Origin: Ephemerocybe angulata | Taxonomy: Eukaryota > Basidiomycota > Agaricomycetes > Agaricales > Psathyrellaceae | Length of the DNA: 64,000 bases | Assembly (NCBI GenBank): GCA_013368325.1 | Contig: JAACJK010000063.1 | Coordinates: forward strand, 434,001-498,000 | Direction: 5' to 3' | Part shown: piece after piece, positions 33,432 through 63,761 of the stretch | Position numbering within the stretch: the first letter of the stretch is position 1 | Layout of the letters: every line of letters begins with the position of its first letter | Position numbers and translations under genes: made by a program | The notes under the pieces: model-generated | What the model saw: only the letters and a program-made list of their open reading frames with translations | Database searches by the model: none | Told to the model about the DNA's origin: nothing

Positions 33432-33500
33432 AGCGGTGATCGTGAGAAGACGAATAGTGATAGATAAGATAACGAAGTATACGACGGTTGAGAAGTCAGA

Positions 33501-33515
33501 GCGCGGGGCTCATAA
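33501..33515 (-). promoter_or_regulatory. Half-tRNA(iMet) primer-binding site
   Basis: Two bases inside the 5' LTR edge the element strand reads TTATGAGCCCCGCGC. This is complementary to the 5' half of initiator tRNA-Met ending in the anticodon loop (..GGGCUCAUAA). Copia of Drosophila and Ty5 of yeast are known to prime from such a cleaved tRNA half. The match to the conserved GGGCUCAUAA core is seen directly; the pairing of the outer bases with this fungus's tRNA is assumed. Confidence 0.8.
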
Positions 33516-43759: not shown

Positions 43760-43892
43760 GACGATACGGAGAGCGACATCGCTGCGTCGTCTGTGGGATC
43801 GCTGTCCTGCTCAGCTTGGAGAAAGCATTCGCATTAAATGACGTACCGCTCTCACTATGCTCGAGCAGCAACACCTTCACGACTCCCTTCAC

Positions 43893-45737
43893 CTCACTTC
43901 TTCAACCTATCCTTCTCCTTTCTCAACTCCTCATCGATCGCATCATTCGTTTCTTCACCTCCAGCGCAGCGCGCTCTCCGGACGTCTCGTTCGCCGGCGC
44001 TCGCGTGAAGACCGCAAGGCTTGTAGTCGTCGTACGATAGCACAATCTTCCTGCCTCTGCGCGTTCTAGGGATGTCCGTGTAAGTGCGTCATCTCGCATC
44101 GCTCGAGGTGAAAGTTTCGGTAGGTGTAGGCGTCGGGAGTTCAAGCGTGCGATGAACTCGGTCACAAGGATGGAAGGTCACCTTGCTCGAATGCCCGCCC
44201 ACCCACATCTACACATCCCGTCCCGCTTCGCTTCCACCCCCCTTGCTTTCCCTCCCTTCCCACCACCCCTTGCGTCCTCCTTCTCACTGTCCCACCCTCT
44301 TCCTTCGGTTCTCAGCTCATCGTTGGAATACGCCATCGTCGTCGAGATGCAGAATGCCGTGCTCGTGGGGTGTGCTTCAGGAATGGAGGTGAGTGCGCCC
44401 GTTCGATTTTCGGCAAGGTTTTGATAGTGTCAGAGGACGGTCATGGCGAGCTCGGTGGCTAGGCAGAGCCCGTCGTCGTCTTCAGTCTTGAGCGCGAGGT
44501 GAGCACACGAGTTTACTGTGCCGGATTCACGTGTTGACGGTTGCTCGGAGGAGCATACTGGGATCGAGCCGGAGAGCTCGTCGAATATGGTGCGTTCACC
44601 GTCCATTCGCGCACGGGCATCGGCGATTCACATGCCATCGTCGCCGTGGTCGTGTGTCTGCCCCGGTGGAGGGTGGTGAGTGTTGCGTCTGTGTTAGGAG
44701 TGGGGGTCGGTTTTCAGGATCCGCGCGCGGCGTAAAGGGTTATCGCCGTTCGGTGCGAGTGCGAGCGCGGTGAGGGAGGATAGGGTGAAGGAGAGCCAGG
44801 CGACTGCGCGCATTGGCTCTTGGGGAGAAGGGATAGATTAGCTTCTGTGTCCTTCAAGGAGACAGCGGAGAAGGACGACGTACAGCGACTGTAACTAAGA
44901 GGTTCTGTTCAATAATGAGGTTCTCCAAACACCGTTATGATTCTCTGGGTATCTTGACAAAAAGGAGATTTGTCGCCGTCGTTGCTAAAGTCCAGTTGGT
45001 TGATGGATAGGTGTGGACAGGCCCGAGGGAAGAGTAAAGACGAGAAATAGTGGTAGGCACTGTAAACTTGCGAATACAGTCACGTAGCATGCAGAGGTTG
45101 TGCATAACTTCACTACCAGGCTCACAAATAGTTACAGCAGAGCCACAGAGGTGGTCGAGGGCAACGGCTTACAGGGTTTTGCATATTGTTGTGAAAATTC
45201 TGAAAGTTCGAATTTTGTCACGTGCCGGTGGCCCCCACCAAACAAAAGCGATTAGATTGCTTGCAGGCGAAGGGTGCCCGTTCTAGGTGCGATTGAGGCT
45301 CGTTTCATGACTAAACACTAATCCTCGAGTATATAATACATGTTTACAGTTATCCGAAGACCTTTCGAAGGCGCAATGTATGGGCGATGGGGTCCAGGAA
45401 AGGGTACCGGGCTTGTCGGAGATGCGAGATTTCATCAAAAGGTTGGGCCGATCATCCCCTCGATTGAGATAAAGCTCTGGTAAAGGCCTCCTTCGTAGGA
45501 TAGTGGTATTATATATACAGATAGTGTCTATCTAGGAGCTATACCTACATATGGGAGAATTTAAGAAGGTTAGAGTAGGAGGAGGGGAGGATTCTAACAC
45601 TATAATATTCTCGTTAGGGCCCTAACTCCATTTTTTTTGGGGCCGTTTCGCAAAAAGCGCACGTCAAAAATTTCAAATTTCAAAAAAAAAAAGGGAAAAA
45701 GGGCGAGTTTGGGGCTCGAACCCATGGACAGGGCCCG
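43893..45737. other. No intact gene; poly-A/T and B-box-like sequence at the right end
   Basis: Plus-strand fragments near 44330-44740 (LEYAIVVEMQNAVLVGCASG and GDSHAIVAVVVCLP) look coding-like but do not join. Bases 45630-45700 carry T- and A-runs. At 45709-45720 the minus strand reads GGGTTCGAGCCC, resembling an RNA polymerase III B box, but no full tRNA cloverleaf could be drawn. Confidence 0.35.
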
Positions 45738-46507
45738 TTATGAAGACTCGACTTGAGTCTTCATAAGTCCCATCCGCTCAAAAATGCCGGTGCAGCAAAA
45801 CACAACTCGAGACTTCACAACAATGCTGTCCGTTCTCCCTCCGCAAACGTTCCAAACTGACTTATGAAGACGCACGTTGAGTCTTCATAACTCACTTCAC
45901 GAAGGATTTCCCATCATCAGCCAAAAACCACCGTTATGAAGACAGACATTGAGTCTTCATAACACGGCACGTGGACAATTTTGATTGTGCGAAGCTCAGG
46001 CACAATTTGATGTCGCATCACTGGCCGTTATGAAGACAGAGTTTGAGTCTTCATAACACGCCTCATGGACAATTACGATGGCATGTCACTCACTCTTAGA
46101 TTCTGGTTCGTTTACTCTTATGAACACTCGATCTCCCTCTCCATAAAACAACGGAGTTGCGTGAACAATTTGAACATGCTTCACTGGCTCATATCAAGAC
46201 AGGAACTGGGTCTTAGGGTTCATGGAATATCATTTGCTCTTATGAAGACTCGAACTCTGTCTTCATAAGACGCGCATGGATCATTTGATTTTGCATCACT
46301 GGCTCTTATGAAGACGGAGATCGAGTCTTCATAAGATGCCGCATGGATCATTTGATTTTGCATCACGCCGCATGCGCGGACATTTTGATTTCACATCAGG
46401 CGGCTGTTATGAAGACAAGGATCGAGTCTTCATAACGCCCGCGCGGACATTTTGATGCTGCGTTATGAAGACACAATCTTTGTCTTCATAACGCCCGCAC
46501 TTCATAA
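45738..46507. repeat. Array of ten 29-base palindromes TTATGAAGAC-N9-GTCTTCATAA
   Basis: Near-constant 29-base units start at 45738, 45862, 45934, 46028, 46118, about 46190, 46240, 46306, 46407 and 46463, with a half unit at 46501. Eight have perfect 10-base arms (12 in the first), and the units at 46118 and about 46190 are degenerate. The central nine bases vary. Gaps are 21-95 bases and often share GCATGGATCATTTGATTTTGCATCAC-like words, so the array probably grew from a larger tandem unit. It lies 240 bases beyond the stop of the dioxygenase-like gene. Each unit would fold as an RNA hairpin or could bind a dimeric protein. No cas-like gene exists here, and the host is a eukaryote. Confidence 0.9.
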
Positions 46508-46746: not shown

Positions 46747-49700
46747 TCACGCCGCAGTAAGCAACCGGTGATTGCGACTGAGCTTGCAGAGCAGGTGCTC
46801 AACACATATTATGTCAAACCCCATCTCCTCTCTCTCCTTCTCCGAATACCCTTCAATTACAAACTTCATCACCTCCTGAAGCCCTGCTTCAATGGCTGGA
46901 ATAGTCTGCCGGTTCCTGCGCTCACCAGCGCTGCCTACCAGCCCAAGATATCTCAAACCCTTTAAAGCTCCAGCATCATTATCGTACACTGCCTGGGCCA
47001 CCTCACCAAGCGATGGATAGCAGCACAAGCCAGCGTATGCCACGTCGCAGGCAAGTAAGTAGGCTGCCAATGGACCTAACTCTTTGAACCTCCCCGCCCG
47101 ATCCCCAGGAGGGCGAAAGAAGTTCACACACTCCGTAAAGGCGCACCTTTTCTCTCTGCTTGTCAACTCCCTCCATTCCTCCTCCAAATCTACGGCAGAA
47201 TCCCAGTATTCTTTGGCGTTTTCGAATTTCCTGCCAAAGGCGGTGCCGCCATACGCGTTCTTCTTGCAGAAGTAACTCTCTTGCTCTGCGTCTTTCGGAT
47301 GTAAAGCCTTGTGCTTCGTGCGCTCGCGCTCTAGATCCTCGTACGAACCAAAGACTTGTTTTGAGCGACGAGCGAAGTCTGTGTCCCAAGTGATAGCTCG
47401 GCAGACGACCATGCTGAACAGACCTTCTTTGGTTTTAGAAACCTGGGGCGCAAATGGACCGTCCTCTCCTGTGAGCCTCCTTCGGTCATCCGCCTTCTCT
47501 CGGAAAGGCAGGAGCGCATTTGGCTTCCGCGCCATCTCGCTCCGGATACGGGCGACTTTCTCATCCCCGTTGCGGGCGCCATTCCCACCCCCCCTGATGT
47601 ATTGCAATCCCGCGTCCAGCAGGACGTGTATGTTGGCATATTCGGGGCTGCGCAGCACCCGAGAAGACGTTGAGAGCGCCCCCCCACTGGATAACGCCTT
47701 GATGCGCTCCCATACGTCGTGCATCTCCGTTCCCCACTGTAACATGGGATGCTCACTCGCGCGCTGCTTGAACCCATTCAGAGAGTCTCGGTTGGGTTTA
47801 CGGCGACGATCGGAAGGTGATAGGTACTTCGAGAACTTGATGGTCGTATATGCCTTCCAAGTAACCCCCAGGAGCAGGACTTCCTCTCCAAATACCTCAA
47901 CTAGAGTTGAAGTAACCCAGGCTTGATGACGATATTCTTCGGCGGGATACCCAAGTAGCTCCCTCAAAATCCCAACCACTACCGTCACAACACGAGTCGA
48001 AGTCCGCGGTTCTCCTCGAGTGTACAGTCCGGGCTGAGGATTGGCGCAGCTGAATTTCCTGTTTCCCAGAGGCGCAAGGGCTGGTTCAATCGATGGGTCG
48101 AACACCAGGCCCTCCAACCGCCTCACCACCATGTCTTCAACCAGCCGAACCAGCACTCGTAGCCAATCTGGTGTTGCTTGTCCCTGGGAATTTGCATCGA
48201 GATATGCCTTGGCGGTACCCACAATGGTTTCGTCCAACCAAGCCCAAATCTCCTGGTTTCCTCTCATAACCGCTTCTCGATATCGACGCAAATGGTAAGA
48301 CTCTCGTCTTATGCCGTTCTCAACAGCACCGCAGCCTTTTATGAAATTGGCTACGATCCCCGGGCTATCAGTGCCGCACGGATTAGAGTGGATGGCCTCC
48401 TTCAAACTCGTCACCTCGTCCAGGAACTTGAGGTTGGAAACGCGCTCCTCCATCTCCAATACCTCCTTTTCTTCCAACAAGTCCATTAATTCATCCTTCA
48501 ACATCGCCCCAGTCAAGTCGCTTAGCAACGGATACTCGCTGGTGCGGGCCTTCTTGCAGAGACGTGTGGCATTATCGTCTAGTGGAGAGTTAATTGCTGA
48601 GGGAATTGGGGGGGACATACTCCACCCACCGTGCTCTGAATCGCTCTCTACACGCCGGCGCTTATCACCGGCCTTGCTCGTGCTGATCTCGCTGCGTGGC
48701 GCCATCCGACCACCCTCCACCTCAAGCTCTACGGTTGCGAGCCCAATACATTAGCACAGAACAAAATGAGGTGATGATTACACACCTGGTTCCGAGGACT
48801 CGGAGATACTCCTCTGCTCCTCACTTCCACCTAACATATCCTCTTCCTCCTTGACTTGAGGCGTCTCCAGCTGGGCGCTCGAGTCTTGGATATCGAACCC
48901 GGGAGAGAGGCGCAGCAGCCGGGAATCCATCAGCGGTCTCGCCCCGTCCACTGCAGCGGCGGTGGTTGGATTCAACAGAGGTGCAACGGTATCCTCCAAG
49001 TCGGATACTTCTTCGTCGGTAGCGGGATCATCATTGGAGTCCGATCTTGCTAACAAGTCTGCACCTACACAGTGCAATGAACTTTATGTACCATCGAACA
49101 TAACAATGCAGCTTACCCGATTTCTTCGCGCCTCTCTCGCCTTTTTTCTTTTCCTTGCCCGAATTGGGCTTGCGTGGGGTGGGCTTCATCTTTGCAGCAT
49201 AGAACTTGCGGGACTCTTCAGCGATATCTGCAAAGTCATCCCGTGCCTTTGATCGCAGCTCTTCCGCCCGACCATAGGAGGAAGGAACAAGCTCCGTAGC
49301 CTTGACTCTAACTCCCCCAACGGTGACCGCCTCCACAACCTCGTCACCATACAAGTCGATGGCATCCGCCACCTCATCCCCATCTGCTGTCTGCGCTATC
49401 AGATATCGCCCAAAGTCCAGCATTCGACGTGATATAAAGTAGGCTCGCGATTCGGGCTCCATCAGGCAGCCTCCTTCGCGGGCCCAGGTAGCGCGAGTGC
49501 AGGGCTTATAGGTGGAGCGGTCACTAACAAACATGTGTTTTGTGGTTAATATACTCCCTCCCAGCTCAAGAGCCCACTCACTTTGCGTTCAACATCTCGT
49601 GCGTCATAAATATAGCTTTTCCGTTATGATCAGATCCCAGGCAGTATTTCGCTTGTCCATTCAACATTTTCGCCGGCGTATACCCAATGTAGTTCACGCG

Positions 49701-50951
49701 ATGGGCATCCTCCGCAGGCTCAACACCATCTGGCGCGATAGGGGACGTACCGACGTGAACCTGTCTCCCAGAAAACAGAAAGCACAGGTACTTCTCCAGT
49801 TCCACAAAAATACCAGCGAACAGCAGCGCAAATATGCCGTTACGATAGCTGTCGGGTAGCTGTGGATTGGCGCAAAGACAACTCGGCCATGCTTCCATAT
49901 CCCCTCCATCGCAATGGGCGTCTCCTTTGACCCCGAGTTCTTGGTTGAGCTCCACATCTGCTCGGTCTCAGTACATGAATCCTTAGAATGAACATCACAA
50001 TACGCACCGCTACCGTGCCTTTTGGCGGAGGATATGTTGCATTGGAAGGTTGCAAAGGCGTAGTTCTCATCACAACCAATGCGAGGAGCCCCGACCACCT
50101 CTGACAGATCCTCCATAGCCTTGGTGAGACTCTGCGGTCCCTTTTCCACTGCGTTCATAGACACCTGCGCAATGGTCTGTGAGAAGTAAGCGTCTGATTC
50201 AAAAGTAAGAACTCGTGAAGCTTCACCGAAATGGCTGAACCAATGACCTCCTGCGACTTGGGCGCTTCTCCTGTGGTCGGATTGTTCTTGAACGTTTTTG
50301 TAGGCGCAACGATGCTGGTGGGCCTCTCCAGGGACGGTCCAAAGGTATAGCAACGCTCCCCCTCCTTGTGCGGCTCTACCCCTGGTAGCGTCTCAAAGTA
50401 CACGCACTTCTTCTTCCTCTCAGCCGGAGGCCCCATGAGGTCCAAAGTGGATTGATCGTACTCCACACGCAGACCACGAGACATGTCATCGCTATCGCTG
50501 TGCATCAGTACCTCCTTAACGCTTATCCTGAGTGACTTACGCCCCAGTAACCCAAGCCAACGGCATATCATCTTCGTACTTCATCCCCTTCTTGGCGTCT
50601 CTTGCGAACGCCATATCTCCTGGACGCATTCTCAAGAAGCCTACCCAGACACCACCCACAAGTCAGCTACATCTAGGAAAGCAAGCACAACAACTCACCG
50701 TGGTCACGGCACAGCTCCTCGGGATCCTCTGAAGGCAACTGAATGTTTGCTTCTATCTCTGACCGCCTCTCCCTGGCCTTGTCCGAAGTATTAAACAGCA
50801 CAATGTACGTCTTGCCGTTCAGATCCTCGGGCTGCTTTGGGTGATTGAATGCACGGCGAAGGGTCGGTAGCTCTCTAGCGTAGGGCCCCGTCCTTCGAAG
50901 AGGCAAAGTTTCCTCTCTGTAGTGGTTACTGGTGGAAGCTGATGCAAACAT
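46747..50951 (-). CDS. Large protein with 2-oxoglutarate/Fe(II)-dioxygenase-like core (about 1300 aa, 7 exons)
   Basis: The exons I infer are 50951-50699, 50640-50541, 50497-49999, 49957-49582, 49523-49117, 49064-48784 and 48728-46747, with introns of 41-59 bases. The N-terminal part includes GFLRMRPGDMAFARD. The central part has GDAHCDGGDMEAW with His at 49916-49914 and Asp at 49910-49908. A hydrophobic strand-rich stretch and FSGRQVHVGTSP (distal His at 49757-49755) follow. This HxD...H arrangement and the G..H.GT.P ending match 2OG-Fe(II) oxygenases, the superfamily that includes TET/JBP. Next come KKKGERGAKKSG, an acidic segment, and a 657-residue C-terminal exon of unknown fold. Exon 3 switches frame between EAPKSQ and VAGGHWF near 50270, so either a one-base loss or an intron I missed exists there. 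The substrate is unknown. Confidence 0.6.
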
Positions 50952-51060
50952 GGCAGAAAGAAAGATTCTGAGGTGGAAGTAAGAAGCAGAGAGGGACTGA
51001 CCTCCCCTTGGTCTGTAAATGGGTGTCTCACTTATGTCACCAGTGAGACCTCAATTAAAC

Positions 51061-51264
51061 AATGTCTCTCTTGCCCCACGGGCGCCTAAAGTATTGAATC
51101 ACCGATCGGAGCGACCGCTCCAAAGTGGAGATCATTTCCCCGTTGAGCAGTGACACCTCAACGAAACATGTCTCTCTTCCCCCGCCGTCCAATGACGGGC
51201 GCCTAAAGTATTGAATCACCGGTCGGAGCAACCGCTCCAAAGCGGAGATCATTTCCCCGTTGAA
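51061..51264. repeat. Two-copy promoter-proximal repeat with GGAGC-N4-GCTCC palindromes
   Basis: Two units share ATGTCTCTCTT and GGGCGCCTAAAGTATTGAAT, the palindrome GGAGC(G/A)ACCGCTCC, and GGAGATCATTTCCCCGTTGA. They lie about 110-310 bases upstream of the ATG of the dioxygenase-like gene, a place where paired regulatory sites would be expected (inference). Confidence 0.8.
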
Positions 51265-51434
51265 CGACTGCGCTGAAGCCTCGTCCGACCTCTTGAGGTT
51301 AATTGGGGGCTAGGCAATAGCATCAAGCGAGCCAAGACATCAGATATAAGCGCCCAGGTTCATCCTCCTCGAACCCCGAAGCGATCGCCTTGATTCCACA
51401 GAAGTACAGAGCAGGGGTAAGATCTCCAATAATT

Positions 51435-52817
51435 TTAAGGCTCCCAATCTTTCATCCCCGCCGCGATAACGTGTTCGATATTTCCCTGGCATATTGGTTA
51501 GAGATAAGGAATTACCCAGGGAGTGGAGCTTACCGATTCAAAGGTGGCAATGGTATAGATAGATCTATTCCGAGAAAAGGCGGTTATCCAGCCTTTCTCG
51601 GTAGAACCCGTCACGGACGTTGCAGATATCAAGTCGCCGATTTCGAACTCCCGGCGAAGGTAACTTGGGGGGATAGGTACGTGCCATCCGCGCCCTTTCC
51701 ACCTCATTGACACGCGCACGAGACCCCCGCTGGTGAGGGCGCTCGAAGGATACGCGCCGCTGAGGTAGATGGAACCGCAGGTACCCGCAAACGGGCCTTT
51801 CACCACTTTGCAGCGCGCTCCATGTGCCAAGCCTTCTGGTCGAAATCTCCTCAGGTCAGCGACCGACGCGTTGAACAAATTTGGTTCGTTCGGGGCAAGA
51901 GCCAGGTTGAAAAGCTCAACCAGCCGACCTGGAGGCTCCTTCACCGGGACCGAGGTTGCGCGCGCGGGTAGCTTCACGACTTGAAGGCCGTACCGGAAGT
52001 GAAGGCGGTCTTCGATCAGATCGGTGGTAGCGTAGGTATCGTGTCCCTCGTCGACTATGTCCGTATGGTGCTCGTTGAAGTAGCGAGACCTGTTTTCTTC
52101 CAGCACAAGGAGAAGGTCCTTCCCGGTGTTGGCGAGGGTGAAGGCGGTAACTACACCCCTGACAGCGTCAAATCGCTTGCTGAGGCCAAGGGCAAGATAA
52201 TCGGATCCGCATGCGCTCTGACCAACAAACAGGAACCACTGGCCGCTAGATACGCCATACGCATGATGATCTTCAAGTGACTTGATAAGAGGAGGGCATT
52301 TGTGATACTCCTCCTTCGTTCCTTCGGGCAAGAGGGTGTCAACGGCGTCTTTCGACGTCGCGTCAACGAAGAAATACCCAGCAAACCTGGGAGATCGCAC
52401 GATGGCTCTGATCCCGGCGTGGAGTTCGCGGTCGCGGGCGGCGGTGAGAGCGGCTTTCACGGCACAGTCAGCAGACGTATAGTTCTGGTTTGTGGCTCTT
52501 GAGATGATCGGTTGAAGGGACAGTTGGACATGCTTACCTCGTCTTCAACCGGGATACGCCAGAGCGAGTCGAACTTTCGGCTCCAGTTATTCGCCGTCGG
52601 ATAGACGTGAAGTTCCTCCGAGTTGGCTTTATTGTTGCTTAGAGCCAGAGATGCGTAAGAGAGAGAAAAACGAACAAGGGTGGCTCAGGAGCTTGGACGA
52701 CTGCCTCTCGAAAATCGTATGCGTCGTCGTCTTCTTGAGTGAGTTCACTTTCAACTACAATCGGGCACGACTTACTGCAGAGACGAGCGGATAGTCGACG
52801 AGGTCGGTGATCCTCAT
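51435..52817 (-). CDS. Spt5-like NGN/KOW protein
   Basis: The main exon 52484-51534 and last exon 51485-51435 join across a 48-base intron with a CTAAC branch, ending ..MKDWEP. Upstream, exon sequence ending in KFDSLWRIPVEDE (donor 52537) joins NYTSADCAVKAAL across 53 bases. The 5' part up to the ATG at 52817 (MRITDLVDYPLV) could not be spliced cleanly and is uncertain. IRAIVRSPRFAGYFFVDATS resembles the NusG N-terminal domain of Spt5. GLAHGARCKVVKGPFAGTCG and YLRREFEIGDLISATSVTGS are KOW-like elements. Genuine Spt5 is far longer with an acidic N-terminus and C-terminal repeats, so this is a short derivative. A role in transcription elongation or chromatin is inferred from fold only. Confidence 0.6.
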
Positions 52818-53032
52818 GGTGGATTGAGATGGGATAGCGAGCGCGACTTGCAATTTTACCGGGCCCCGATTTGATGTCATCAATCCGTCAACTATCCAAC
52901 CCACCATCTCACTCCGGGCGCTGTTAAGTTCCGCATCCAGCCCTCGTGTACGGACGAGGGTGTTATTGATGTTCGCTCATCACCAAGACGAGAGAAAAAA
53001 AGCCGGCATCAAATCGAAAACTGAGGCATACA

Positions 53033-53176
53033 TCGAGATACAAATACATTCGGGAGGTACATACAGGCAGGGGCGCAGCGAGGTACAAATACACCAAAGA
53101 TACGTCGAGATACAAATACATTCGGAAGATACATACAGGCAGGGGCGCAGTGAGGTACAAATACACCAAAGATACG
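53033..53176 (+). repeat. 72-base tandem duplication
   Basis: Two units starting TCGAGATACAAATACATTCGG repeat with about four differences. They sit between the Spt5-like and chromodomain genes, so they may contain the 3' flank of the latter. Confidence 0.85.
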
Positions 53177-53226
53177 AACGCAAGAAAGATTCAAAAGAGA
53201 CTTACAATTTGATGGAGGGGAAAGGA

Positions 53227-54136
53227 TTAACCGCCGAGAAGGAAGATGTCCGATTCGACATCTTCCTTCTTGATGTACGCAGAGACTGGCGCTGTCGAGT
53301 CTCGTAAATCGGCGTGGGTATCCTGTACGATTCCCTGTGAAGTACGTGAGAAACAAAAGAAGGGTAAATAAAAGATTCCGTACCTGCCAAACGTCCAGAG
53401 CTGCCAGCTTCTCAGCGTCCTCCTGCGGAATCCAAGACGCCTCGACGTAAGGATACCCAGTCCATAGGACCCGATACTCGCTGCCGCTGTCGTTCTCACG
53501 ATAGTCCAAAACGCGGTCGACGTAGTACTCGGACCCCTCGGCCGTCTTTACCTCAGGGGGAGCACGCCGACCAACAGGAATCTGGCCGGGATCCAGCCCA
53601 ACGTCCTCAAGCGACAGCCTGCGATGGAGCAACAGGGCTAATTGAACGTTACTGAGGTATGTTTGAGAAAATAGCAACCTACTCAGGCTTGGGGAGCTCG
53701 TGAGCCCGAATCGCAACCTGTTCGCTCGAATATCCGCTGCTGGGGGCATGGGCGCTTATACAGTCAAAGATCAACGCGGTTTGACGCACCCGTAGTCAAC
53801 GACTAGTCCAAGACGCTCGCGCTCCAACTCGCCGTCCGACTTCTCCATCCGGAAAACCCTGTCGCCAGTCTTCAACGCGAGACGGAGATGCGCTAGCAAT
53901 GTCCTTAGCGCGCCATTGGAACCAAGCTAGAGAGACATACCGAAGGGGTGGGCAACCTCGTCAAGGCACGCGTTCTCCGACAGGAAGGCGAGCAGGTCGC
54001 CGCTACCTTGTGAGAACGACACTATGAAGGTCCTCCCGGCAGGTTCGGGTTGAAGGTCGTGGGATTGGACCTGTCGGACATACACCAGCTCGTCGCCAAG
54101 ACTAAAGACTTTTTGATTCCGGTTGACTTCGTACAT
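53227..54136 (-). CDS. KOW-like plus chromodomain protein (232 aa, 5 exons)
   Basis: Exons 54136-53941, 53892-53790, 53739-53683, 53618-53384 and 53334-53227 fit exactly in phase through introns of 48, 50, 64 and 49 bases. The N-terminal half has GDELVYVRQVQSHDL and TGDRVFRMEKSDGELERERL then GLVVDYG, looking like an SH3/KOW-type barrel. The C-terminal half is a chromodomain, EYYVDRVLDYRENDSGSEYR then VLWTGYPYVEASWIP, at about 149-183, with the likely aromatic cage Tyr151, Trp171, Tyr174. HP1-type cages bind methyl-lysine on histone H3. The tail ends with an IKKEDVE acidic stretch, a possible SUMO-acceptor-like site. An in-frame upstream ATG at 54181 would add 15 residues. Together it looks like a chromatin reader linked to an elongation-factor-like module. 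Confidence 0.78.
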
Positions 54137-54181
54137 GATGGAGGGGATTGAGATGGGGGAGATAACAGGGCAATGACGCAT

Positions 54182-54646
54182 TTAAAAAGTCTTTGTTTCA
54201 GGCAAGCGGAGCCATGCGACTAAGATCGATACCGCTCCGCGCTCCGCGCCCGTTTAGGACGACAGTGTCTGAGACACCAGAAGTGGGCCCCTGCCTCAAC
54301 AGCCAGAGGCGTCAGTTCAAGGCCTCATTGCAATGTGAATTTTTAATACGTACGCAACGAAGTCTACCGCGGTGAGGAGAACCCGAAGGCGAAATAGGCG
54401 CCCATCAAACTGCCGAAAGATTGCGCGCGTTCTCCATGAGCGCATTGGAGCCCGAAACGCGTCATATTTGGGGCTGTTTCACCCGCCCATGACGTCGTCT
54501 GACGCAGAGGTCTCGGGTTAATGCCCCTGAGACATTACCCGTCCTGTAGCGCAGGCTCCGTCACGCGATCGTGCGCCGGCGCTTAGAACAAGAAGCGCCG
54601 GCGCCAAAGCGTTACGCGAGACGCCTAGTCGCGTGCCCGCCTGGAA
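54182..54646. other. Spacer without gene
   Basis: GC-rich left part of the divergent spacer. No frame or motif stands out before the palindromic repeats begin. Confidence 0.4.
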
Positions 54647-56950
54647 ACATCATCGCCGTGTAAAAAAGCGCGCTTTCAGCGCGACTTAACCCGCTTATGA
54701 CGTTTGGCGCATGCGCGGCGACGTCCAGCACCCGTTGCGTCGACTCGAACGCGCCTGAGGGCGCGGCGCATCGAAATGCGCGTCATCAGCATGTAAACTC
54801 GCGCCTAGTCACCGCGACTTTACTCTCGGATGACGTTTGGGTATGCGCGGCGCCCGTCGATTTGAACCAATCGCGCCGTATTATACGGCCTCGCCCACCC
54901 AACCCTCTGCAGAGACGTATTCAAGGGCGGCCCGTTGAAGTCATCCCAGAGCACTTCGAATCTCGCCCTCACGGCGGGGTATCTCGTGCTGCTGGGTGAC
55001 GTCCAACAGACCTCGCACCTCGCACGAGCGCCGCGCAGGTGGCGATGGACGGTCAAGAGGAGCGGCACTCCCAAGCGCCCGTTCCAATCCTCGGCGGCAC
55101 TTGCCGAGCCGTCACGTGCCACACCCTGGAAATGCTGCTGTGACGTTTGCCGCACGCCCTGTTGAATTGGTGCAGGGCGCAAACGTCATCTGCATGTAAA
55201 ATCGCGCCTATTCAGCGCGATTTTACCCTCGGATGACGTTCCGCCCGGCGCTCAAGGGCGTGCCCGTTGAAGTCACCCAGAGCACTTCGAATCTCGCCCT
55301 CACGGCGGGGTATCTCGTGCTGCTGGGTGACGTCCAACAGACCTCGCACCTCGCACGAGCGCCGCGCAGGTCGCGATGGACGGTCAAGAGGAGCGGCACT
55401 CCCAAGCGCCCGTGTTCCAATCCTCGGCGGCACTTGCCGAGCCGTCACGTGCCACACGCACGCGGCCTAAGCGCCCTGGAATTGCTGCTGTGACGTTTGC
55501 CGCACGCCCTGTTGAATTGGTGCAGGGCGCAAACGTCATCTGTATGTAAAATCGCGCCTATTCAGCGCGATTTTACCCTCGGATGACGTTCCGCCCGGCG
55601 CTCAAGGGCGTGCCCGTTGAAGTCACCCAGAGCACTTCGAATCTCGCCCTCACGGCGGGGTATCTCGTGCTGCTGGGTGACGTCCAACAGACCTCGCACC
55701 TCGCACGAGCGCCGCGCAGGTGGCGATGGACGGTCAAGAGGAGCGGCACTCCCAAGCGCCCGTGTTCCAATCCTCGGCGGCACTTGCCGAGCCGTCACGC
55801 GCCACACGCACGCGGCCTAAGCGCCCTGGAATTGCTGCGGTGACGTTTGCCGCACGCCCTGTTGAATTGGTGCAGGGCGCAAACGTCATCTGTATGTAAA
55901 ATCGCGCCTATTCAGAGCGATTTTACCCTCGGATGACGTTTGGGTGCCGCAAGCACGCCTCCTTCGCACCTTCCCCTAACTCCGTTCGGAGGCCTTCGCG
56001 CCTCCCAACAAGTACCAGCAACAGCCACCGCACGAGCCCAACCGCTTCCCGCAGTTCAGCACTCATTCCGCTCTCTCCCTATCGAGACCAACTCCACGGT
56101 ATACGCGCCAAAGCGCACGGCGAGCCTCCATCCGAGACGCGTACGCATCGCTGCGCCCGCTTAGGCACATGAATCACCCCTAGTTAACTGGGAAGTATCT
56201 CACCTACTTAACTCCCGCCGTGATTAAACACCCACCACAGCCCAAACACCAATTCACCGAGACCAACTTCGCGGTAGACTGGCCAGCAGCGGCTATGCGC
56301 ATCATCACCCGCGCTGCTCGTTCCCCAAGTCAGGAAAGAGAAGGTACGTCTCTCGCCGACTTACCCTGACAACTCACGCACTCACACGCAATGATCAATC
56401 TAGAGTAACCCTACACTACGAATAAACTACGTATGCGACTACCAATCCAATCTACTCCACCCAAATCGAAGGGCCTAGCGCGAATCTGGAAAATGTCCAA
56501 GGAACTAAAGTCAGTTACGTGTCGCGAATCAATTCGAACTCACGGGCGGTATAACGGCAGCAATCTGCGGTTCGACTGGAATATATTGCGTAATTGAAAA
56601 CGAAATAATTGAAACCCGGGAACTAACCTGATCCCCCGGCGGGATGAAAGAACGCCTTGAAGACTAAAAGCAGACAAATAGCTGGGCTGTGGGGTGAAAG
56701 GTGAGGATGACTACGTGCGGGGTATGCGGAGTGTTGGCGGCCGGAATCAGGGAATTGGGACAGAGTACTGCAGCGAGCGGGCATTGAGTGAGCAGTTAGT
56801 CGATGTCAGAGACCCACCGCACGCGCAGCCGTGTCCCGCGCCCATTCATTTGGCTCGACAACGCGAAATGCGCCCTTGCAGCGCGCAAACGTCATCAGCA
56901 TGTAAAATCGCCCCTAGTCACCGCGATTTTACTCTCGGATGACGTTTGCG
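54647..56950. repeat. Palindromic satellite in the divergent spacer (350-base units)
   Basis: Six long imperfect palindromes occur at about 54647-54715, 54774-54840, 55179-55240, 55529-55590, 55879-55942 and 56883-56950. Each has AAACGTCATC and GTAAAATCGCG on the left mirrored by CGCGATTTTAC and GATGACGTTT on the right. Units between 55211 and 55910 repeat with an exact 350-base period, a more diverged copy precedes them, and a partial copy lies around 56880-57100. Within units a second inverted pair, TGACGTTTGC...GCAAACGTCA, surrounds CGCCCTG..CAGGGCG. The array fills the space between two divergent genes, the chromodomain gene on the left and the JmjC gene on the right. Confidence 0.9.
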
Positions 56951-57360
56951 TATGCGCGGGAGCGCTCGGCGCCCGTCGATTCCAAACGATCGCGGCGCAA
57001 GTCGTGCGTTGAAGTTGCCCAGAGCACTTCGAATCTCGCCCTCACGGCGAGGTATCTCGTGCTACTGAGCGTCTGACGCAGCACCTTGCGCAAGCGCTGA
57101 TCAGGTGAGTGTGCAAAGGGCAAGAGGAGGAGCAGCCAAGCGCCCGCCGCGGCCTTTGCCGAGCCATCAGGTCACGTGACCTTGAGTCATGTGCGCCTCA
57201 CCCGCCGTCTAAGCGCCCGTTCTCCCAGGTCCGTTCGGAGCGCTGGGATCCCGCATAAAAAACCCCAAATATATTATAAACTCATATATATATTTAGTTC
57301 TTTCATGGCTGCTTTCCCCGTTCCACCGCAAGTAGCCCTGCAGTTTATTCCAGAATCCAA
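56951..57360. other. JmjC promoter side of the spacer, AT-rich TATA-like stretch
   Basis: Bases 57261-57296 include AATATATTATAAACTC and ATATATATATT, about 140-170 bases before the JmjC ATG. A short frame starting at 57305 stops within the hairpin and is not supported as a gene. Confidence 0.4.
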
Positions 57361-57399
57361 GCTTACTAAGCTTTTCACTGGGTGAAAAGCTTAGTAAGC
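57361..57399. promoter_or_regulatory. Perfect 18-base inverted repeat with 3-base loop
   Basis: GCTTACTAAGCTTTTCAC, the loop TGG, and its exact complement form a hairpin 33 bases before the JmjC start codon. If it lies in the transcript leader it would be a strong barrier to ribosome scanning. As DNA it could be an operator-like dimer site or the footprint of an excised or hairpin-ended element. Confidence 0.9.
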
Positions 57400-57432
57400 A
57401 TCTGATTTGCCCCACCGATTTTCCAGGCGCCC

Positions 57433-60400
57433 ATGTCTGACCTGAACCACCGCCTTCGTCCTCGCCACACCATGCCGACCCCCGTCATTAGATTGTGGCT
57501 GGCGTGCTTCGAATTCGCCACAGGCCTCCCGAATCACACCGGCAGCATGGCGGAGCTAATATCAGACAATTCTCCTCTGCAGGTGCGCCCTTATAAGCGC
57601 CCGCGTTATGAGACACGCTAACAATTCTCTAGAACCTAGCGCTAAAGCTCGATAATATGGAGCGGCGTCTCATGTCTGGCGATGAGAGCGCGCTCGCCAT
57701 GGGTATCCAGTACTACACCGGTGAAAAGCTCGCTCCCGGTCTACCAGAGCCAGGGGGCGCTCCTCCACCCGCCATAACCCAAACCCTGGCTCTTCTAGTT
57801 GCATGCTACCGCGTCATCGACTACCACCTGTTCCGATCCGGCAAGCTAGAGGGTCCGCCGCCTCGTCGCCCTGCCCCGATTTCCTTCTCCAAGCAAGCGT
57901 ACGCCATCGACGACTGGGTGAAGAAGGTCAACGGCTTCCGCACGGAGCTCCCGCGCGATTACGGCCGAGGATCTCTTCCATCATCCTCCATGCAGTCTTC
58001 TCCCGACGATCCACCGACTCTCGTCAAGAACTTGCTCCTCTGGAAGAAGAACGAGAACATTCTCAAGGTCCAGTATAATCTCTATCGCTGCGCCCTGTTC
58101 CTCGCGTATCTCTGCTCTCCCTCTGGTATCTCGGTGCGTAGTGCCAATATTTCTCTCGCTGTCTCTAACTGGTTTTCAGGACCCATTCACCGCTGCGAAC
58201 GCGAAAGAATTCTTTGCAGACGCCGCCAACTTGCCTGGGTGAGTCTTATCGACGGTCGACACGCCGGAAAACCAACGTCCTAACTCCGTCCAGCTCCGAT
58301 AAACTGAGTGAGGGTGAGCTCGAGCAGATTTCGACCTTCATGGAGGACTCCAAGGGGCACTTCTACTTCCAAATTCCGTTTCTGTCCTCTCCTCTTCGCC
58401 TCATCGCCGCGGCGGACATTGGGAAGGCAAGGTGGACTCCGAAATGGATCATTCAGGTGAGCACAGTCCCAAAAGCACAAATGGACCCGCCCTAACTCGC
58501 TGTCAAGGACGCACTAAACCGCAGCAATCGACCGCGGGTCTTGAAGGCAGCCGAAGAAGCCGTAGCTGCAGCTGCTCTCGACGTGGCTTTCTCCGGGGTG
58601 AACGCCTCAGCCGCGCTCTCTACAGCTGCAGAGCGCTTGGCGGTGATTCTCCAAGGCACAGCCAATTTCGAACCTACGTGGTTTGTCCTGCAGAACAATC
58701 CCCCGTCACCTCCCGTCGTTGAGCCCCTTCCATCACCTCCCGTCATTGAGCCCCCTCCATCACCTCCCGTCATCGAGAAACCCCCGTCAACTCCCACCAG
58801 CGAGCGCCCACCCAAGAGGAAGACTCCCCCCATCCCGTCATTGACACCTCATGTCAGTCCCCCTCAAAAGAAGCGGAGTCTCTCCGTTACCACAGGTGGC
58901 CCATCCACTTCGTTCTCCAGCCCCCTCACTCCTCCTCCCTCGACACCACGCCTCACCCCGCCTAGAGATCGCTCGCCTTTCTCCGACATTACAGTGGATC
59001 AGACCGATCCTGAAATGGCGATCGATTCTCCTGCATCATCCTACGGCCCCGTGCTGCAACCTCAGCGGAGCCTAAGCATACTCAGGTACAAGAGCTCGAG
59101 GGCCCGGCTCTCCCCATCTCACTCATTGCCATGGATGCTTTACAGAGGCGAGATAAACTACAACTACGAAGGGAGGGAGGATGTGAGACAAGAAGAGGAT
59201 ACTCCGCAGGACGAACTCATGACGGATATGACCGCGGGCCGATTAGAAGGTGTAGGGCAGGAGATCAACGACGCTAGGGATGCCGATGTTGTAGACTCCG
59301 AAAGGGAGAGCGAAGAGGAGGAGACGGTCGATTCCGAAACGGAGGGGAAGATCGGTGTCAAGGCGGGGGTCGAGGCCGATGGCGAAGCGGATGCGGAGGG
59401 TGAAGTGGATGCGGAGGGTGAAGTGGATGCGGAGGGTGAAGCGGTCGGCGTAGCGGATGTTGAGCGTGGAGTGGATGCTGACGAGGGGAGCGACGAGGGG
59501 AGTGCTGACGAGGGGAGCGACGAAGAGAATGCTGACAAGGGGAGCGACGAAGAGAATTCTGACAAGGGGAGCGACGAAGAGAATGTGGTCGGCGTCGAGG
59601 GGAGTGCTGACGAGGGGAGCGACGAAGAGAATGCTGACAAGGGGAGCGACGAAGAGAATTCTGACAAGGGGAGCGACGAAGAGAATGTGGTCGGCGTCGA
59701 AGCTGAGGATGCAGAGGATCGGTTCGTTGTAGACACCGAGAAGGGCGCCGGTGATCTCGACGCCAATGGGGAGCGGGATTCGGTCGAGCTTGCGGAAGCT
59801 CTCAACCTCTTATCCATGCCGCGTCAGAGGGTCGATCCTGGTCTCCCCAAGTTTATACCATCCTCCCAGAGCGGTCCTTCCAAGCGCGTACTCGGGGAAA
59901 GGACTGTTCTGTTCCACGACATCCGCGGGTTGGCACACCCGTACACTCCCTGCATGACCGTGAGTACTAAGCGTAATAGCCTGGACGCCGCTTATTCTCC
60001 CAACTAATACAGCCGGCGGAACTCAAACAATTCTACGCGTTCATGGACGCTGCAGAATCTTGGTACGTGCACGGTAAACCGCGTCATGTTACCGCTCCGT
60101 CAACGTCTGCGTTCCTACGCTATGATGCCGACAAGTTCAAGTCTGATCCTGCCAACGCGCGGCGGGCATTTGCGACCCAGAACATCGTCATCCCCGCTTC
60201 GGAGTTCAAGGAGGTCGAGCTTAGCGCGGAGTTGATCGAGGAGACCGAGGCCCTCGGACGCGTTCGCGTCATGCAAGACTACTCTTTGCTTAGCAAGAAG
60301 AATCGCGGCAACGGCATTCGTGTCTCTGCCACTCTTCGAGATCTCCTTAACGAAGATTCCGAGGGCCACCGCGGCAAGGTTCTCAACGGGCTTGACAACC

Positions 60401-61773
60401 CTATGAACGCAGCTGTGACTCGTGGACCGCTCTTCTCCGATGTTGTAGCCGCGTCCGAGACGACGGAGTGCCCGATTCCTGGATCAAGCAACTACCCCAC
60501 CACAGACGCCAGGTGGGCTCTGGTGGCGAACAAGGACGCACATCACGACTGGCACGTGGACTCTAACGGGGCGGCTACCTTCATTCACAACAGGGCCGGC
60601 GGAAAGGCATGGTTTGTTGCAGTACCTATCGACGGCGGTCCAGCACTCCCCTTCTTTGCTGTGTTGGACCGTTTTATCAAACAGTGGGACACTGGCGATG
60701 CGGGTCTGGGACGCTGGCGCATCGAAGTGATTTACCTTGGACCAGGAGATATGTAGTGAGTTCATCGCTTACAGGTCAAGGTGCTTAGTTAACCTTTATC
60801 CAGCTTCCAACAACCTCTCACGGTTCACGCTGTGTGGACCACGAAGAGCGCTCTGTGTCATGGCGGACATTTCTACTGCTCTACCACGTTCGCACACTCC
60901 GCTGCCGCCCTCATTGGCGCCTTTCACCTTGAGCAGGTGATCACCAACACTCGCCACCTTCCCCTCTTCAAACTTTGGCTCAGGCAGGTCATCTTTTACT
61001 ACGACCTCCTCGTCTGCAAGGGCACGTCACCAGCGAATGTTGACGTTCTGGGCGTCGACCTTCTGGGAGACTGGGGTTCATTCCACGGCTTCGTCATGCT
61101 TCACGTCACTGCTGCTCTTGCCTTTGTCCTCGATCCTCGCACGTATGAGAATGACGAAGAGGAAAAGTTCACAGAGGACGCTGTCGTCATGGCTCTCTAT
61201 GCCCGAGGAGCAGCCCTGGCCACTATGGAGTGCTTAGGCAGACAGGGGCTTACGGTCCGCGTACCTGGCAACAAGCGTCCGCAGCGAGCGGACGCTTATT
61301 TCGCCGAGACCCTTCTAGAGCAGTCACTTCTTTTGGTCCGCGCATGCGACGCCATCGAGCGCGACGTTGAGGACGACTCAAGTGATGAAGACTCGAACGA
61401 TGGAGATTCGCACGACGGGGACTCGGACGCATCTCATCTCCCTAAGGTCGGCCCCGCGACCTGGAACCGCGCCCGTCTAATATCCGTACTGAACGATGCG
61501 CTATCCCATAACACCAAGCTTCAGGGCGCCTTTTCTTGTGCTGTGGGGAAGTTGGATCCCCAATCCCCCAGCTACCCCATTCCTACCATCCCACTTCAGC
61601 TTGAGGGAGAAACACAACTCACCGGCATCCCCCCACGTCCTACCGAACATGATCTCGTCATCGTCGCCGGCCGAGGTCTCACCGACCTCTCCCGCACCCG
61701 CTTCCGAAGGATGATGCAGGTTGTAAAGATCAAGGAGGAGGCCGTCGAGGTTGAGAATTTTGATGGACAGTGA
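57433..61773 (+). CDS. JmjC-domain protein with long acidic linker (1345 aa, 7 exons)
   Basis: Exons 57433-57582, 57633-58133, 58180-58238, 58294-58456, 58508-59959, 60013-60755 and 60804-61773 join in frame through introns of 46-55 bases. After about 300 helical residues come a Pro/Ser-rich region with PSPPVIEPP repeats and basic KKR motifs, then a strongly acidic repeat region. The JmjC core follows: DAHHDWHVDSNGAATF gives the iron-binding His956 and Asp958, and MYFQQPLTVHAVWTT gives the distal His1031, followed by CHGGHFY. That HxD..H set is typical of JmjC 2OG oxygenases (lysine demethylases or hydroxylases). An acidic DSNDGDSHDGDSD loop lies nearer the C-terminus. No PHD or other reader domain was seen. 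The substrate is unproven. Confidence 0.82.
59501..59704 (+). repeat. 102-base coding duplication inside the JmjC acidic linker
   Basis: Two apparently exact copies start AGTGCTGACGAGGGGAGCG. Each encodes 34 residues built from smaller GSDEEN(A/S)DK repeats. The high copy identity suggests recent slippage or gene conversion and a length-variable linker. Confidence 0.92.
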
Positions 61774-61878
61774 TAGGTAGCCGGATTAACAATTTACTCA
61801 GACTCGATACGAATTATTTTTTAAGTAGAGACTATATTCGCTAATGGTACGAGGAACATTCGAGCAGATCTAGATTCG

Positions 61879-63084
61879 TTAGAGTGCGCCCTGTCCGGTT
61901 CCACTTCCAGACGCATCGGCCGGCGCAGCCATCTCTTGTCGCCTCTTCGCCTCCTGCTTCCTCCATCGAGACTCCCTTTGCTTAGATTTATTTTTCTCAG
62001 CTTTCTCCCTCTTTGCTTTCTCGGAATTCCGCGCTCGATTATCCAAGAAAGCAGTCGCGCGGTCTTGGTTCCTCGCCGCAAGCCTAGTGCGGCGCTCCTC
62101 CATTGCCGCCGCTGCGGGTCCGTGGTTCGTTGGCTCCTGAGGCCCCTCTGGTATCGATTGGACCACCGCTTCCATCCCATCGGTAGGAGCGCAGTCGACA
62201 CATGGGCACGAGGATCCAAACCACTCTTCCCCATAGTTCACGGTGATCTCCTCTCCCGCCACCACATCCCTCGTAGTCCGAGCAATGAACGCTGAAGTTC
62301 TTGGGATGTATACGTACTAACGGGAGCGGTAAGTTTGTCTTATCCGAGTCCGGTGATTAGGCCCACTTACTTCAGCATTGAATGACCGACATAGGTGGTT
62401 CACCATCCGCAAAGGTCCGACGAGCACCCGCTCCGATCCAGCCTCCTGGTTCTGGCCATCGGCGACCCTGATTGCGGATAAGGATGAATGGCGTGATTCG
62501 TTATCACCAGGCATGATACCCAAGGCCTCCCAAATATCCACGCCGCCTCGAATATCCATTCGAGCAAAGATCCCAAAGCCTTTCTGGGAGTAAGCGCCCA
62601 TTTTCGAAACGCCTAATCGAACCACGCTCCTGGGAGAAATGACCATGGCATACGCCGCAACGAACCTTGGATCTTTCCATCAACGACTCAGGACGCAAGA
62701 AACAAGTTTACCGACTCACCACTCCACGCAGTCGAGCATCGCTATGCTAAGCGCCCGACAGCCTCGGTCTGACCCTCCATCTACCTGTCGCCTTCTTACG
62801 AGGGCTGAACGAACTTTCTTCGCAGCCGCAAGGTAGGTGCTGGCGCGTGATAGCTCAAACAGATCCTTGTGTTCCTCGAACGTATCTCGGATCGTCAAGA
62901 GAGTCAGACCAGAGACGCCGACAGAAGTCCCTACAATCTGTGGAATGTGGGCTTCGGGCCTGCTTGGGCTGGCTGGCGCAAACAGAGCCAGCACGACCAG
63001 GTCATCCGCGGAGATCGCGTCTGTCGAGGTCATGAGAGGCGCGGACGATAGCGCTTTTGCAACAAGTTCAGCTTGGGAGGACAT
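61879..63084 (-). CDS. SET-domain lysine methyltransferase-like protein (365 aa, 3 exons)
   Basis: Exons 63084-62720, 62665-62371 and 62316-61879 join in phase through introns of 54 bases each. Residues 1-120 are a helical region without a known domain. The SET domain follows: KGFGIFARMDIRGG with the cofactor-binding GFG at 151-153, NHLC then RSFNAEY (211-221), and FIARTTRDVVAGEEITVNYG with the catalytic Tyr248. CPCVDC right after it looks like a short post-SET zinc motif. The C-terminal 90 residues are basic with many KR/ER pairs, possibly a nucleic-acid-binding or nuclear signal. The gene converges with the JmjC gene, 105 bases between stops, and shares a 155-base divergent promoter with the small gene on its right. 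The target lysine cannot be told from sequence. Confidence 0.82.
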
Positions 63085-63239
63085 CGCAGTCAGGAGGAGA
63101 AAGAGCCACGGGGCGACCGCGTGTTCGAAATCAAAACATCATTGATCGGAAGGTATAAGATCTCCGCTCAAGGCGCACTTTCAACGGTCATCCTCAACAC
63201 CCACTCGCGCAGCCCCTCTGAGCTGAGCAACGGCAGAAT

Positions 63240-63761
63240 ATGAACATATCTCCGAAATTGGTGGAGAGGGTGAGTGGTAGATCTACACCGGTGGGTAGAT
63301 ACATCTAAATGCCCGCACATTCACCTAGGTTAGATCAGCCTCCAAAGAGAACAGAGATCCCAATCGCAGTGGCGAAACTAAGCCTCGTCCCCGGAAACAC
63401 ATTCAAGCAACGGGCTGGGAACTCTGGAAGCTTGCGTATGCCGAGTTCCACGAAGAAAAACAACAAAAAATCGAAGACTCAAACCGGAAAGACGGGGAGA
63501 AGCGGCAAGTGAAGTTCGCCGACGAGGTTGAGGTAATCCCGCGATCGCCCCGCCCGCAGAAACCTGTCAGTGTCTTTTAGAATAGCTGCTGTTAAACCTA
63601 TCATTCACCTCCAATTTCATTAGATCAATGCCGCTCGCCTTCTATTCAAGCGAAGGCGGCAGCAAGAAAATTTGCAGAGATTGAAGCGGGTGAAGGGCAA
63701 ATCGCACTTTGCGCCTGCGCCCCGCCGCACCGCCAATGTGACAGCTCCAACCCCTATTTAG
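63240..63761 (+). CDS. Small basic protein of unknown function (134 aa, 3 exons)
   Basis: Exon 63240-63269 (MNISPKLVER), exon 63329-63565 and exon 63624-63761 join in phase 0 through introns of 59 and 58 bases. The protein is rich in Lys and Arg. It contains TGWELWKLAYAEFHEEKQQK, an amphipathic aromatic helix, then RQVKFADEVEVIPRSP, which is reminiscent of RVxF-type phosphatase-1 docking (KVKF/QVKF plus downstream acids), and a basic tail LLFKRRRQQENLQRLKRVK. A PP1-binding role is only a hypothesis from this motif. The ATG lies 155 bases from the divergent SET gene, so the two may be co-expressed. Confidence 0.6.

What the first reader, a model, noticed from the sequence alone, without database searches (positions are those of the whole stretch)
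46747..63761. Compact island of chromatin writer, reader and eraser-type genes
Within 17 kb lie a 2OG/Fe(II) dioxygenase-like protein, an Spt5-like NGN/KOW protein, a KOW-like/chromodomain protein, a JmjC protein, a SET methyltransferase and a small basic protein, with no unrelated gene between them. The motifs (HxD..H, chromodomain aromatic cage, JmjC triad, SET NHxC and Tyr) are seen directly. Fungal genomes are known to carry transposon-linked expansions of oxygenase (TET/JBP) genes, so this could be the cargo of a large mobile element or a self-contained epigenetic module. A shared function is inference.
Basis: partly seen in the sequence, partly recalled or inferred. Interest (0 to 1): 0.88.

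Follow-up and report, generated by a model that had tools for sequence, protein, structure and literature searches.

The report
Old fungal cluster of chromatin-type genes
A mushroom-type fungus carries, side by side, genes that look able to write, read and erase marks on its DNA-packaging proteins, together with a private array of DNA palindromes; two of the gene families are neighbours again elsewhere in the genome, but the block does not look like the known transposon cargo, and what it does is untested.

Summary
"Spt5-like NGN/KOW" fails. The cluster runs past the window to about C77:521,600 and includes an F-box-like gene.

TET/JBP-transposon cargo was tested with an in-genome control: 18 of 25 Tet_JBP loci lie within 6 kb of a KDZ transposase; 0 of 26 oxygenase and 0 of 17 JmjC loci do. 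The block is close to single-copy.

Grouping is not accidental for one pair: 6 of 10 non-redundant JmjC groups lie within 20 kb of an oxygenase relative, in shuffled order (P 3e-9 under uniform placement, 3e-4 under my harshest null). Chromodomain and oxygenase genes are neighbours again on C215 and may share an N-terminal module. SET and NGN paralogs are not linked.

New: nine exact 29-bp palindromes, all in this island, none elsewhere in the genome.

Best reading: an old, selected, non-mobile cluster of lineage-specific chromatin-type genes; joint function unproven.

The parts
46747..50951 (-). 2OG/Fe(II) oxygenase gene, 8 exons, 1278 aa; Fe ligands HCD and H, plus R, in exon 49582-49957
   Evidence: Spliced model open end to end; 52 matches in the genome merged by eye into 26 loci; H, D, H, R kept in 19 of 21 rows, the other two rows do not reach the site; no Pfam or PDB match
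51435..52734 (-). Gene of an NGN/KOW-like protein of unproven family; N-terminus unresolved
   Evidence: First exon joins failed; a join by eye, later checked as open with GT..AG introns to 51453. Pfam Spt5-NGN only 13.8 bits; paralogs at C77:500190, C117:618584 (with stops), C147:373878
53227..54136 (-). HP1-like chromodomain gene, 5 exons, 232 aa; N-terminal module resembling that of the oxygenase
   Evidence: Model; Pfam Chromo 38.3 bits; HP1 chromodomain E 2.6e-4; paralogs at C77:520844-521590 and C215:150906; module test
54793..57067 (.). Repeat-rich spacer (350-bp unit, 2.3 copies, and diverged copies) between the chromodomain and JmjC genes
57433..61773 (+). KDM2/KDM7-like JmjC gene, 7 exons, 1344 aa, with an acidic repeat stretch before the catalytic domain
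   Evidence: Model; profile against PDB E 1.9e-7 to KDM7; HxD, K at H+17 and second H kept in 14 of 16 rows, altered in C47 and C11; Pfam JmjC does not match it
61879..63084 (-). SET-domain gene, 3 exons, 365 aa, closest solved relatives SUV420H1/KMT5B
   Evidence: Model; Pfam SET 38.5 bits; PDB E 5.3e-5
63329..63577 (+). Frame of a possible small protein (19 K+R, 14 D+E of 83); unverified
   Evidence: no Pfam family near its cut-off
45738..46491 (.). Array of eight exact palindromes TTATGAAGAC-N9-GTCTTCATAA and one decayed copy at 46118, just 3' of the oxygenase gene
   Evidence: genome-wide 9 exact sites, all on C77; arms identical, flanks about one third identical

Best explanation
The block is an old, resident cluster of lineage-specific chromatin-type genes in a fast-changing part of an agaricomycete-like genome. 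It grew by duplication and reshuffling and was not carried in as transposon cargo. SHOWN: open oxygenase, chromodomain, JmjC and SET gene models with their motifs; paralog families; repeated neighbourhood of the JmjC and oxygenase families in varying order; a second oxygenase-chromodomain pair on C215; low amino-acid change against high silent change for two genes. INFERRED: the JmjC protein oxidises methyl-lysine as its KDM2/KDM7 relatives do (H3K9, H3K36 or H4K20 by analogy). INFERRED: the SET protein methylates lysine, perhaps H4K20. INFERRED: the chromodomain reads methyl-lysine. INFERRED: the oxygenase shares a targeting module with the chromodomain protein and so acts at the same place. 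The palindrome array is most simply a set of sites for a dimeric DNA-binding protein at the left edge of the cluster. The likely net role is local control of silencing, chiefly removal, in this dynamic compartment.
For: Gene models. Family identities. JmjC-oxygenase linkage: 6 of 10 non-redundant JmjC groups within 20 kb, P 2.7e-9 under uniform placement. Second oxygenase-chromodomain pair on C215. Shared N-terminal module: in the HMM search the C215 chromodomain protein scores 16.9 bits (E 0.0029), the other two 8.9 and 8.7 (E about 1), the best of 9000 shuffles 8.0; hhalign probability 95.4. Purifying signal: chromodomain dN 0.24, dS 1.43 over 78 codons; oxygenase pN 0.185, pS 0.755 over 180 codons. 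No KDZ link and nearly single-copy block DNA.
Against: SET and NGN paralogs are not linked to the other families, so the full five-gene set is known from one place only. Orientation and order vary between linked loci, so no fixed cassette exists. Four of 10 JmjC groups have no oxygenase within 20 kb; 3 of 10 have none within 40 kb. Linkage could come merely from both families living in recently duplicated contig-end segments. A Tc5-type transposase frame lies about 1 kb from the C193 JmjC copy, so some copies may have moved with transposons. Pfam JmjC does not recognise the JmjC gene. No expression data and no relatives' genomes were available. The oxygenase substrate is unknown. The NGN protein does not pass as Spt5-like. 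The shared module rests on weak single-sequence scores, two of the three near the best shuffles.
Confidence: 0.6

Rival explanations
1. Passive neighbours: each family expands by its own duplication in a permissive, contig-end-like compartment, and proximity carries no function.
For: 8 of 16 JmjC loci with known contig length lie within 12 kb of a contig end (three of them on contigs of 41 kb or less) against at most 9.5% of the genome; near-identical copies of both families there; shuffled order; SET and NGN not linked.
Against: Linkage also holds away from contig ends (window 73 kb, C43 91 kb, C11 117 kb, C47 556 kb) and survives a threefold coverage penalty; an N-terminal module, moderately supported, ties oxygenase and chromodomain genes.
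Confidence: 0.3
2. Cargo of a large mobile element of a kind not searched here, whose outer ends lie near the 95-bp direct repeat pair 43.7 kb apart.
For: A 95-bp repeat, 94.7% identical and in direct orientation, at window 45617-45711 and C77:523312-523406 brackets the cluster; only these two copies were listed. A Tc5-type transposase frame stands beside one JmjC relative, on C193.
Against: No transposase among the frames of the block scanned with Pfam and no KDZ listed on C77; block close to single-copy; the repeat pair is 5% diverged and has transposon remnants next to it on both sides. C77:504,001-520,299 was not read.
Confidence: 0.07
3. TET/JBP-KDZ transposon cargo, as in known Kyakuja elements.
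For: The genome does carry such gene pairs; the oxygenase shares the HxD..H..R layout.
Against: Pfam Tet_JBP misses the window oxygenase and the 10 aligned members even at E 10; 0 of 26 oxygenase loci within 6 kb of KDZ against 18 of 25 Tet_JBP loci.
Confidence: 0.02

Closest known systems
Transposon-borne TET/JBP dioxygenases of fungi (Kyakuja/KDZ and others; PMC12730594)
   Same: Expanded family of HxD..H 2OG oxygenases in an agaricomycete-like genome, plausibly acting against silencing
   Different: No Tet_JBP profile match, no KDZ within 6 kb, not multi-copy as a block; linked instead to a JmjC family and a chromodomain gene
KDM2/KDM7 (JHDM1, PHF8) JmjC lysine demethylases
   Same: Profile E 1.9e-7 to KDM7; HxD, lysine at H+17 and second His kept in 14 of 16 rows
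   Different: Expanded family (32 matches merged by eye into 17 loci); below Pfam JmjC detection; His instead of the Thr three residues before the first ligand (recalled for PHF8); no PHD, F-box or CXXC domain found by Pfam on the parts scanned
SUV4-20/KMT5 H4K20 methyltransferases
   Same: Best solved relatives; NHxC motif and post-SET-like cysteines (read by eye)
   Different: E only 5.3e-5 over 62 residues; substrate unknown
HP1/CDYL chromodomains
   Same: Chromodomain with Tyr-Trp-Tyr at the cage positions (positions recalled for HP1, read by eye)
   Different: Joined to an N-terminal module resembling that of the oxygenase; no chromoshadow domain reported by Pfam
Fungal functional gene clusters
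   Same: Neighbouring genes of related theme, partly recurrent pairing
   Different: Chromatin-type enzymes rather than metabolism; pairing known only within one genome

Membership tests
TET/JBP dioxygenase | Match to Pfam Tet_JBP | tested here: not met
   None at E up to 10 for the window protein or the 10 aligned members; 30 matches elsewhere, none at an oxygenase locus, show that the model works in this genome
TET/JBP dioxygenase | HxD..H iron ligands | tested here: met
   19 of 21 rows, the other two not covering the site; shared by 2OG oxygenases in general, so not specific
KDZ (Kyakuja) TET+ transposon | KDZ transposase within a few kb | tested here: not met
   0 of 26 oxygenase loci within 6 kb, 1 of 26 within 20 kb; control 18 of 25 within 6 kb (104 KDZ loci merged by eye from the listed part of 170 matches)
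Mobile element cargo | Terminal repeats and target duplication | tested here: inconclusive
   No inverted pair reported in 44-64 kb; one 95-bp direct repeat pair brackets the cluster; the region beyond the window only partly read
KDM2/KDM7 JmjC demethylase | Profile similarity of the catalytic domain | tested here: met
   14 of 14 hits at E up to 10 are KDM2/KDM7
KDM2/KDM7 JmjC demethylase | Match to Pfam JmjC | tested here: not met
   No match for the window protein at E up to 10; 1 of 7 aligned members at E 0.063; genome search lists 5 matches, none at these loci
KDM2/KDM7 JmjC demethylase | Fe ligands and the 2OG lysine | tested here: met
   14 of 16 rows; C47 and C11 altered; role of the lysine recalled from PHF8
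KDM2/KDM7 JmjC demethylase | Reader domain (PHD or CXXC) in the same protein | tested here: not met
   No such Pfam match on the parts scanned
SET methyltransferase (KMT5-like) | SET domain above cut-off | tested here: met
   nearest SUV420H1/KMT5B
Spt5/NusG NGN-KOW | NGN and KOW domains above cut-off | tested here: not met
   13.8 bits against 22.4
Co-regulated epigenetic module | Conserved co-occurrence | tested here: inconclusive
   Met within this genome for JmjC-oxygenase (6 of 10 groups), one extra locus for oxygenase-chromodomain, not met for SET and NGN; no other genome available
Co-regulated epigenetic module | Co-expression | not testable with these tools
   No RNA-seq available

The most novel reading that the evidence does not exclude
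The cluster is a self-addressed chromatin switch. A dimeric protein binds the island-private palindrome array and recruits the oxygenase and chromodomain proteins through their shared N-terminal module. The SET protein writes and the KDM7-like protein erases marks of one axis (H4K20/H3K9), so the island controls silencing of itself and of the dynamic compartment in which its relatives multiply.
Probability: 0.08. Interest if true: 0.85.

Novelty: new variant of a known kind. Interest (0 to 1): 0.52.

Why it matters
The anti-silencing oxygenases described in mushroom genomes ride on transposons (PMC12730594). Here a different oxygenase family, without a Pfam model, pairs repeatedly with a KDM7-like family, and at one place with a chromodomain and a SET gene, without a KDZ transposase. 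If the pairing is functional, it gives a second, host-resident route to local control of silencing, and a natural test set of linked and unlinked copies in one genome.

Tried and rejected
TET/JBP-KDZ cargo: rejected by the in-genome control. Recent multi-copy element: rejected by nearly single-copy DNA. Spt5-like identity: rejected. Structure prediction of the oxygenase core and of the NGN frame failed (mean pLDDT 37 and 32), so no fold search was made. The public protein search gave no JmjC relative at E 0.001 among the 7997 candidates scored and three short metagenome proteins for the oxygenase; I suspect that database is poor in fungi. Subtelomeric location: not shown. Contigs C115-C118, C120 and C146, which carry near-end copies, show no exact (TTAGGG)4, while the listing stops within C150.

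Rows dropped: the weak C218 JmjC match from the groups; five Tet_JBP matches under the cut-off; near-identical copies merged into 10 groups. My first grouping into 12 had not merged C152 with C193 and C120 with C117b/C213, and was corrected. Matches were merged into loci by eye.
Full report
SETTING. The window is contig C77:434001-498000 of a 58.7-Mb assembly in 232 contigs; the tool holds no relatives. KDZ transposases, expanded Tet_JBP genes and (TTAGGG)n ends suit an agaricomycete; the species was not identified.

ANATOMY. From left to right: an RPN7-domain gene on the minus strand (42734-43810); a transposon end (45170-45595) with copies on C64, C13 and C63; a palindrome array (45738-46491); the oxygenase gene (46747-50951, minus); the NGN-like gene (51435-52734, minus); the chromodomain gene (53227-54136, minus); a repeat-rich spacer; the JmjC gene (57433-61773, plus); the SET gene (61879-63084, minus) (models; intron borders). 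A small frame near 63.3 kb stays unverified. Beyond the window, C77 carries a second NGN-like frame (C77:500121-501059), an F-box-like gene (C77:501602-502891, just under the Pfam cut-off) and a second chromodomain gene (C77:520844-521590). The block is therefore about 41 kb long, and not all of it is chromatin-like. C77:504,001-520,299 was not read.

WHAT THE PROTEINS ARE. Pfam JmjC does not find the JmjC gene. The profile of 7 family members finds only KDM2/KDM7 chains in the PDB, 14 of 14 at E up to 10, best 1.9e-7. HxD, the lysine at H+17 and the second His are kept in 14 of 16 rows; C47 and C11 are altered. The SET protein is nearest to SUV420H1/KMT5B (E 5.3e-5). The chromodomain is nearest to HP1 (E 2.6e-4) and keeps Tyr-Trp-Tyr at the cage places (positions recalled, read by eye). 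The oxygenase family keeps H, D, H and R in the 19 of 21 rows that cover the site; they are invariant in the 10 aligned cores. It matches no Pfam Tet_JBP model and no PDB chain (a few members give weak, unrelated Pfam names). The NGN-like protein does not pass as Spt5-like.

A SHARED MODULE. An HMM of the oxygenase N-terminus (11 rows) scores the C215 chromodomain protein at 16.9 bits (E 0.0029) and the other two at 8.9 and 8.7 bits (E about 1); the best of 9000 shuffles reaches 8.0. A profile-profile comparison gives probability 95.4 and E 1.9e-8 for a single pair. Among the five window models only the oxygenase and the chromodomain protein score positively. This is moderate, not decisive, support.

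TRANSPOSON TEST. PMC12730594 (abstract, sections 18 and 23, and passages read) describes TET/JBP genes carried by Kyakuja and other DNA transposons in mushrooms. This genome has such pairs. Of 30 Tet_JBP matches 25 exceed the cut-off, and 18 of those 25 lie within 6 kb of one of 104 KDZ loci, which I merged by eye from the listed part of 170 matches. None of 26 oxygenase loci and none of 17 JmjC loci does; within 20 kb it is 1 of 26 and 1 of 17. In the DNA search of 44-64 kb the only match over a whole gene region is the C215 oxygenase (68%, and 65% for a second piece); short matches fall in low-complexity coding repeats, spacers and the transposon-rich left edge. Against this, a Tc5-type transposase frame (25.3 bits, cut-off 22.2) lies about 1 kb from the C193 JmjC copy, whose 3.5 kb are 99.7% identical on C152.

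LINKAGE. Oxygenase relatives lie near JmjC relatives at the window, C202, C43, C47, C117 (start) and C11 within 20 kb, and at the C117 end within 40 kb. After merging copies that are 98% or more identical, that is 6 of 10 JmjC groups within 20 kb and 7 of 10 within 40 kb; P is 2.7e-9 and 2.0e-9 under uniform placement. Dropping the window and the weak C11 pair leaves 4 of 8 within 20 kb, P 3.7e-6, or 2.7e-4 if the covered fraction is tripled, an ad hoc penalty. Order and strand differ between loci, so this is no fixed cassette. The C47 JmjC copy has lost ligands. SET and NGN paralogs lie elsewhere. The best oxygenase paralog, on C215, again has a chromodomain gene nearby, match edges 4.7 kb apart.

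AGE AND SELECTION. Amino-acid change is low against silent change: chromodomain pair dN 0.24, dS 1.43; oxygenase pair pN 0.185, pS 0.755, saturated. The window genes are old. By contrast several JmjC and oxygenase relatives exist as copies 98-100% identical, some oxygenase pairs about 92%, often near contig ends, so the families are still multiplying elsewhere.

PALINDROMES. TTATGAAGAC-N9-GTCTTCATAA occurs exactly nine times in 58.7 Mb, all on C77: eight in 754 bp beside the oxygenase gene and one at C77:501435 in the same cluster. With up to 3 mismatches only one more island copy and two scattered ones appear. Arms are identical while 30-base flanks agree at 32-35%, the nearest 10 bases at 40% and loops at 44%; since copies were chosen by exact arms, the lack of 1- or 2-mismatch copies is the stronger point. 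Loop length is 9 in all nine. Diverged duplication of a unit of 55 bases or more is visible. Protein-binding sites are the simplest reading; this is inference.

FUNCTION. By family knowledge, KDM7 enzymes remove H3K9me and H4K20me1, SUV4-20 enzymes write H4K20me2/3, and HP1 chromodomains read H3K9me (all recalled). A writer, an eraser and a reader of one axis in one cluster is suggestive, but no substrate was tested.

LITERATURE. Six searches of the held open-access library listed, among the rows shown, no paper on such a cluster; only PMC12730594 was opened, the rest were seen as listings.

VERDICT. Observation partly confirmed; cargo reading rejected for the known form; a partial, recurrent grouping is real. 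Function remains inference.

Noticed in passing
window 45738-46491 and C77:501435-501463: Nine exact 29-bp palindromes with constant 9-base loop, found nowhere else in the genome; arms identical, flanks diverged.
   Followed up: yes
window 45617-45711 and C77:523312-523406: 95-bp direct repeat, 94.7% identical, bracketing the whole cluster 43.7 kb apart; only two copies listed; the sequence just past it in the window reads like a tRNA T-arm (by eye).
   Followed up: partly
window 9316-17886: Single open frame of 2857 aa with gag, protease, RT, RNase H and integrase domains: a gypsy-type retrotransposon polyprotein.
   Followed up: no
window 32562-33509: Copia-type gag frame (Retrotran_gag_2).
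   Followed up: no
whole genome, Tet_JBP and KDZ matches: 18 of 25 Tet_JBP genes lie within 6 kb, most of them 3.9-4.6 kb, of a KDZ transposase: an abundant TET+ Kyakuja-like family.
   Followed up: partly
L009:3-563 (C193), minus strand: Tc5-type transposase frame about 1 kb from a JmjC relative.
   Followed up: partly
C77:342754, 352562, 362377; C86:941686, 951279, 960897; C95:6645, 16216: Short matches to window spacers recur at 9.6-9.8-kb steps, pointing to long tandem arrays.
   Followed up: no
C116, C32, C115, C117, C120, C213, C146, C151, C118 near contig ends: JmjC and oxygenase relatives as near-identical copies (98% or more, some oxygenase pairs about 92%) near contig ends: recent segmental duplication.
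   Followed up: partly
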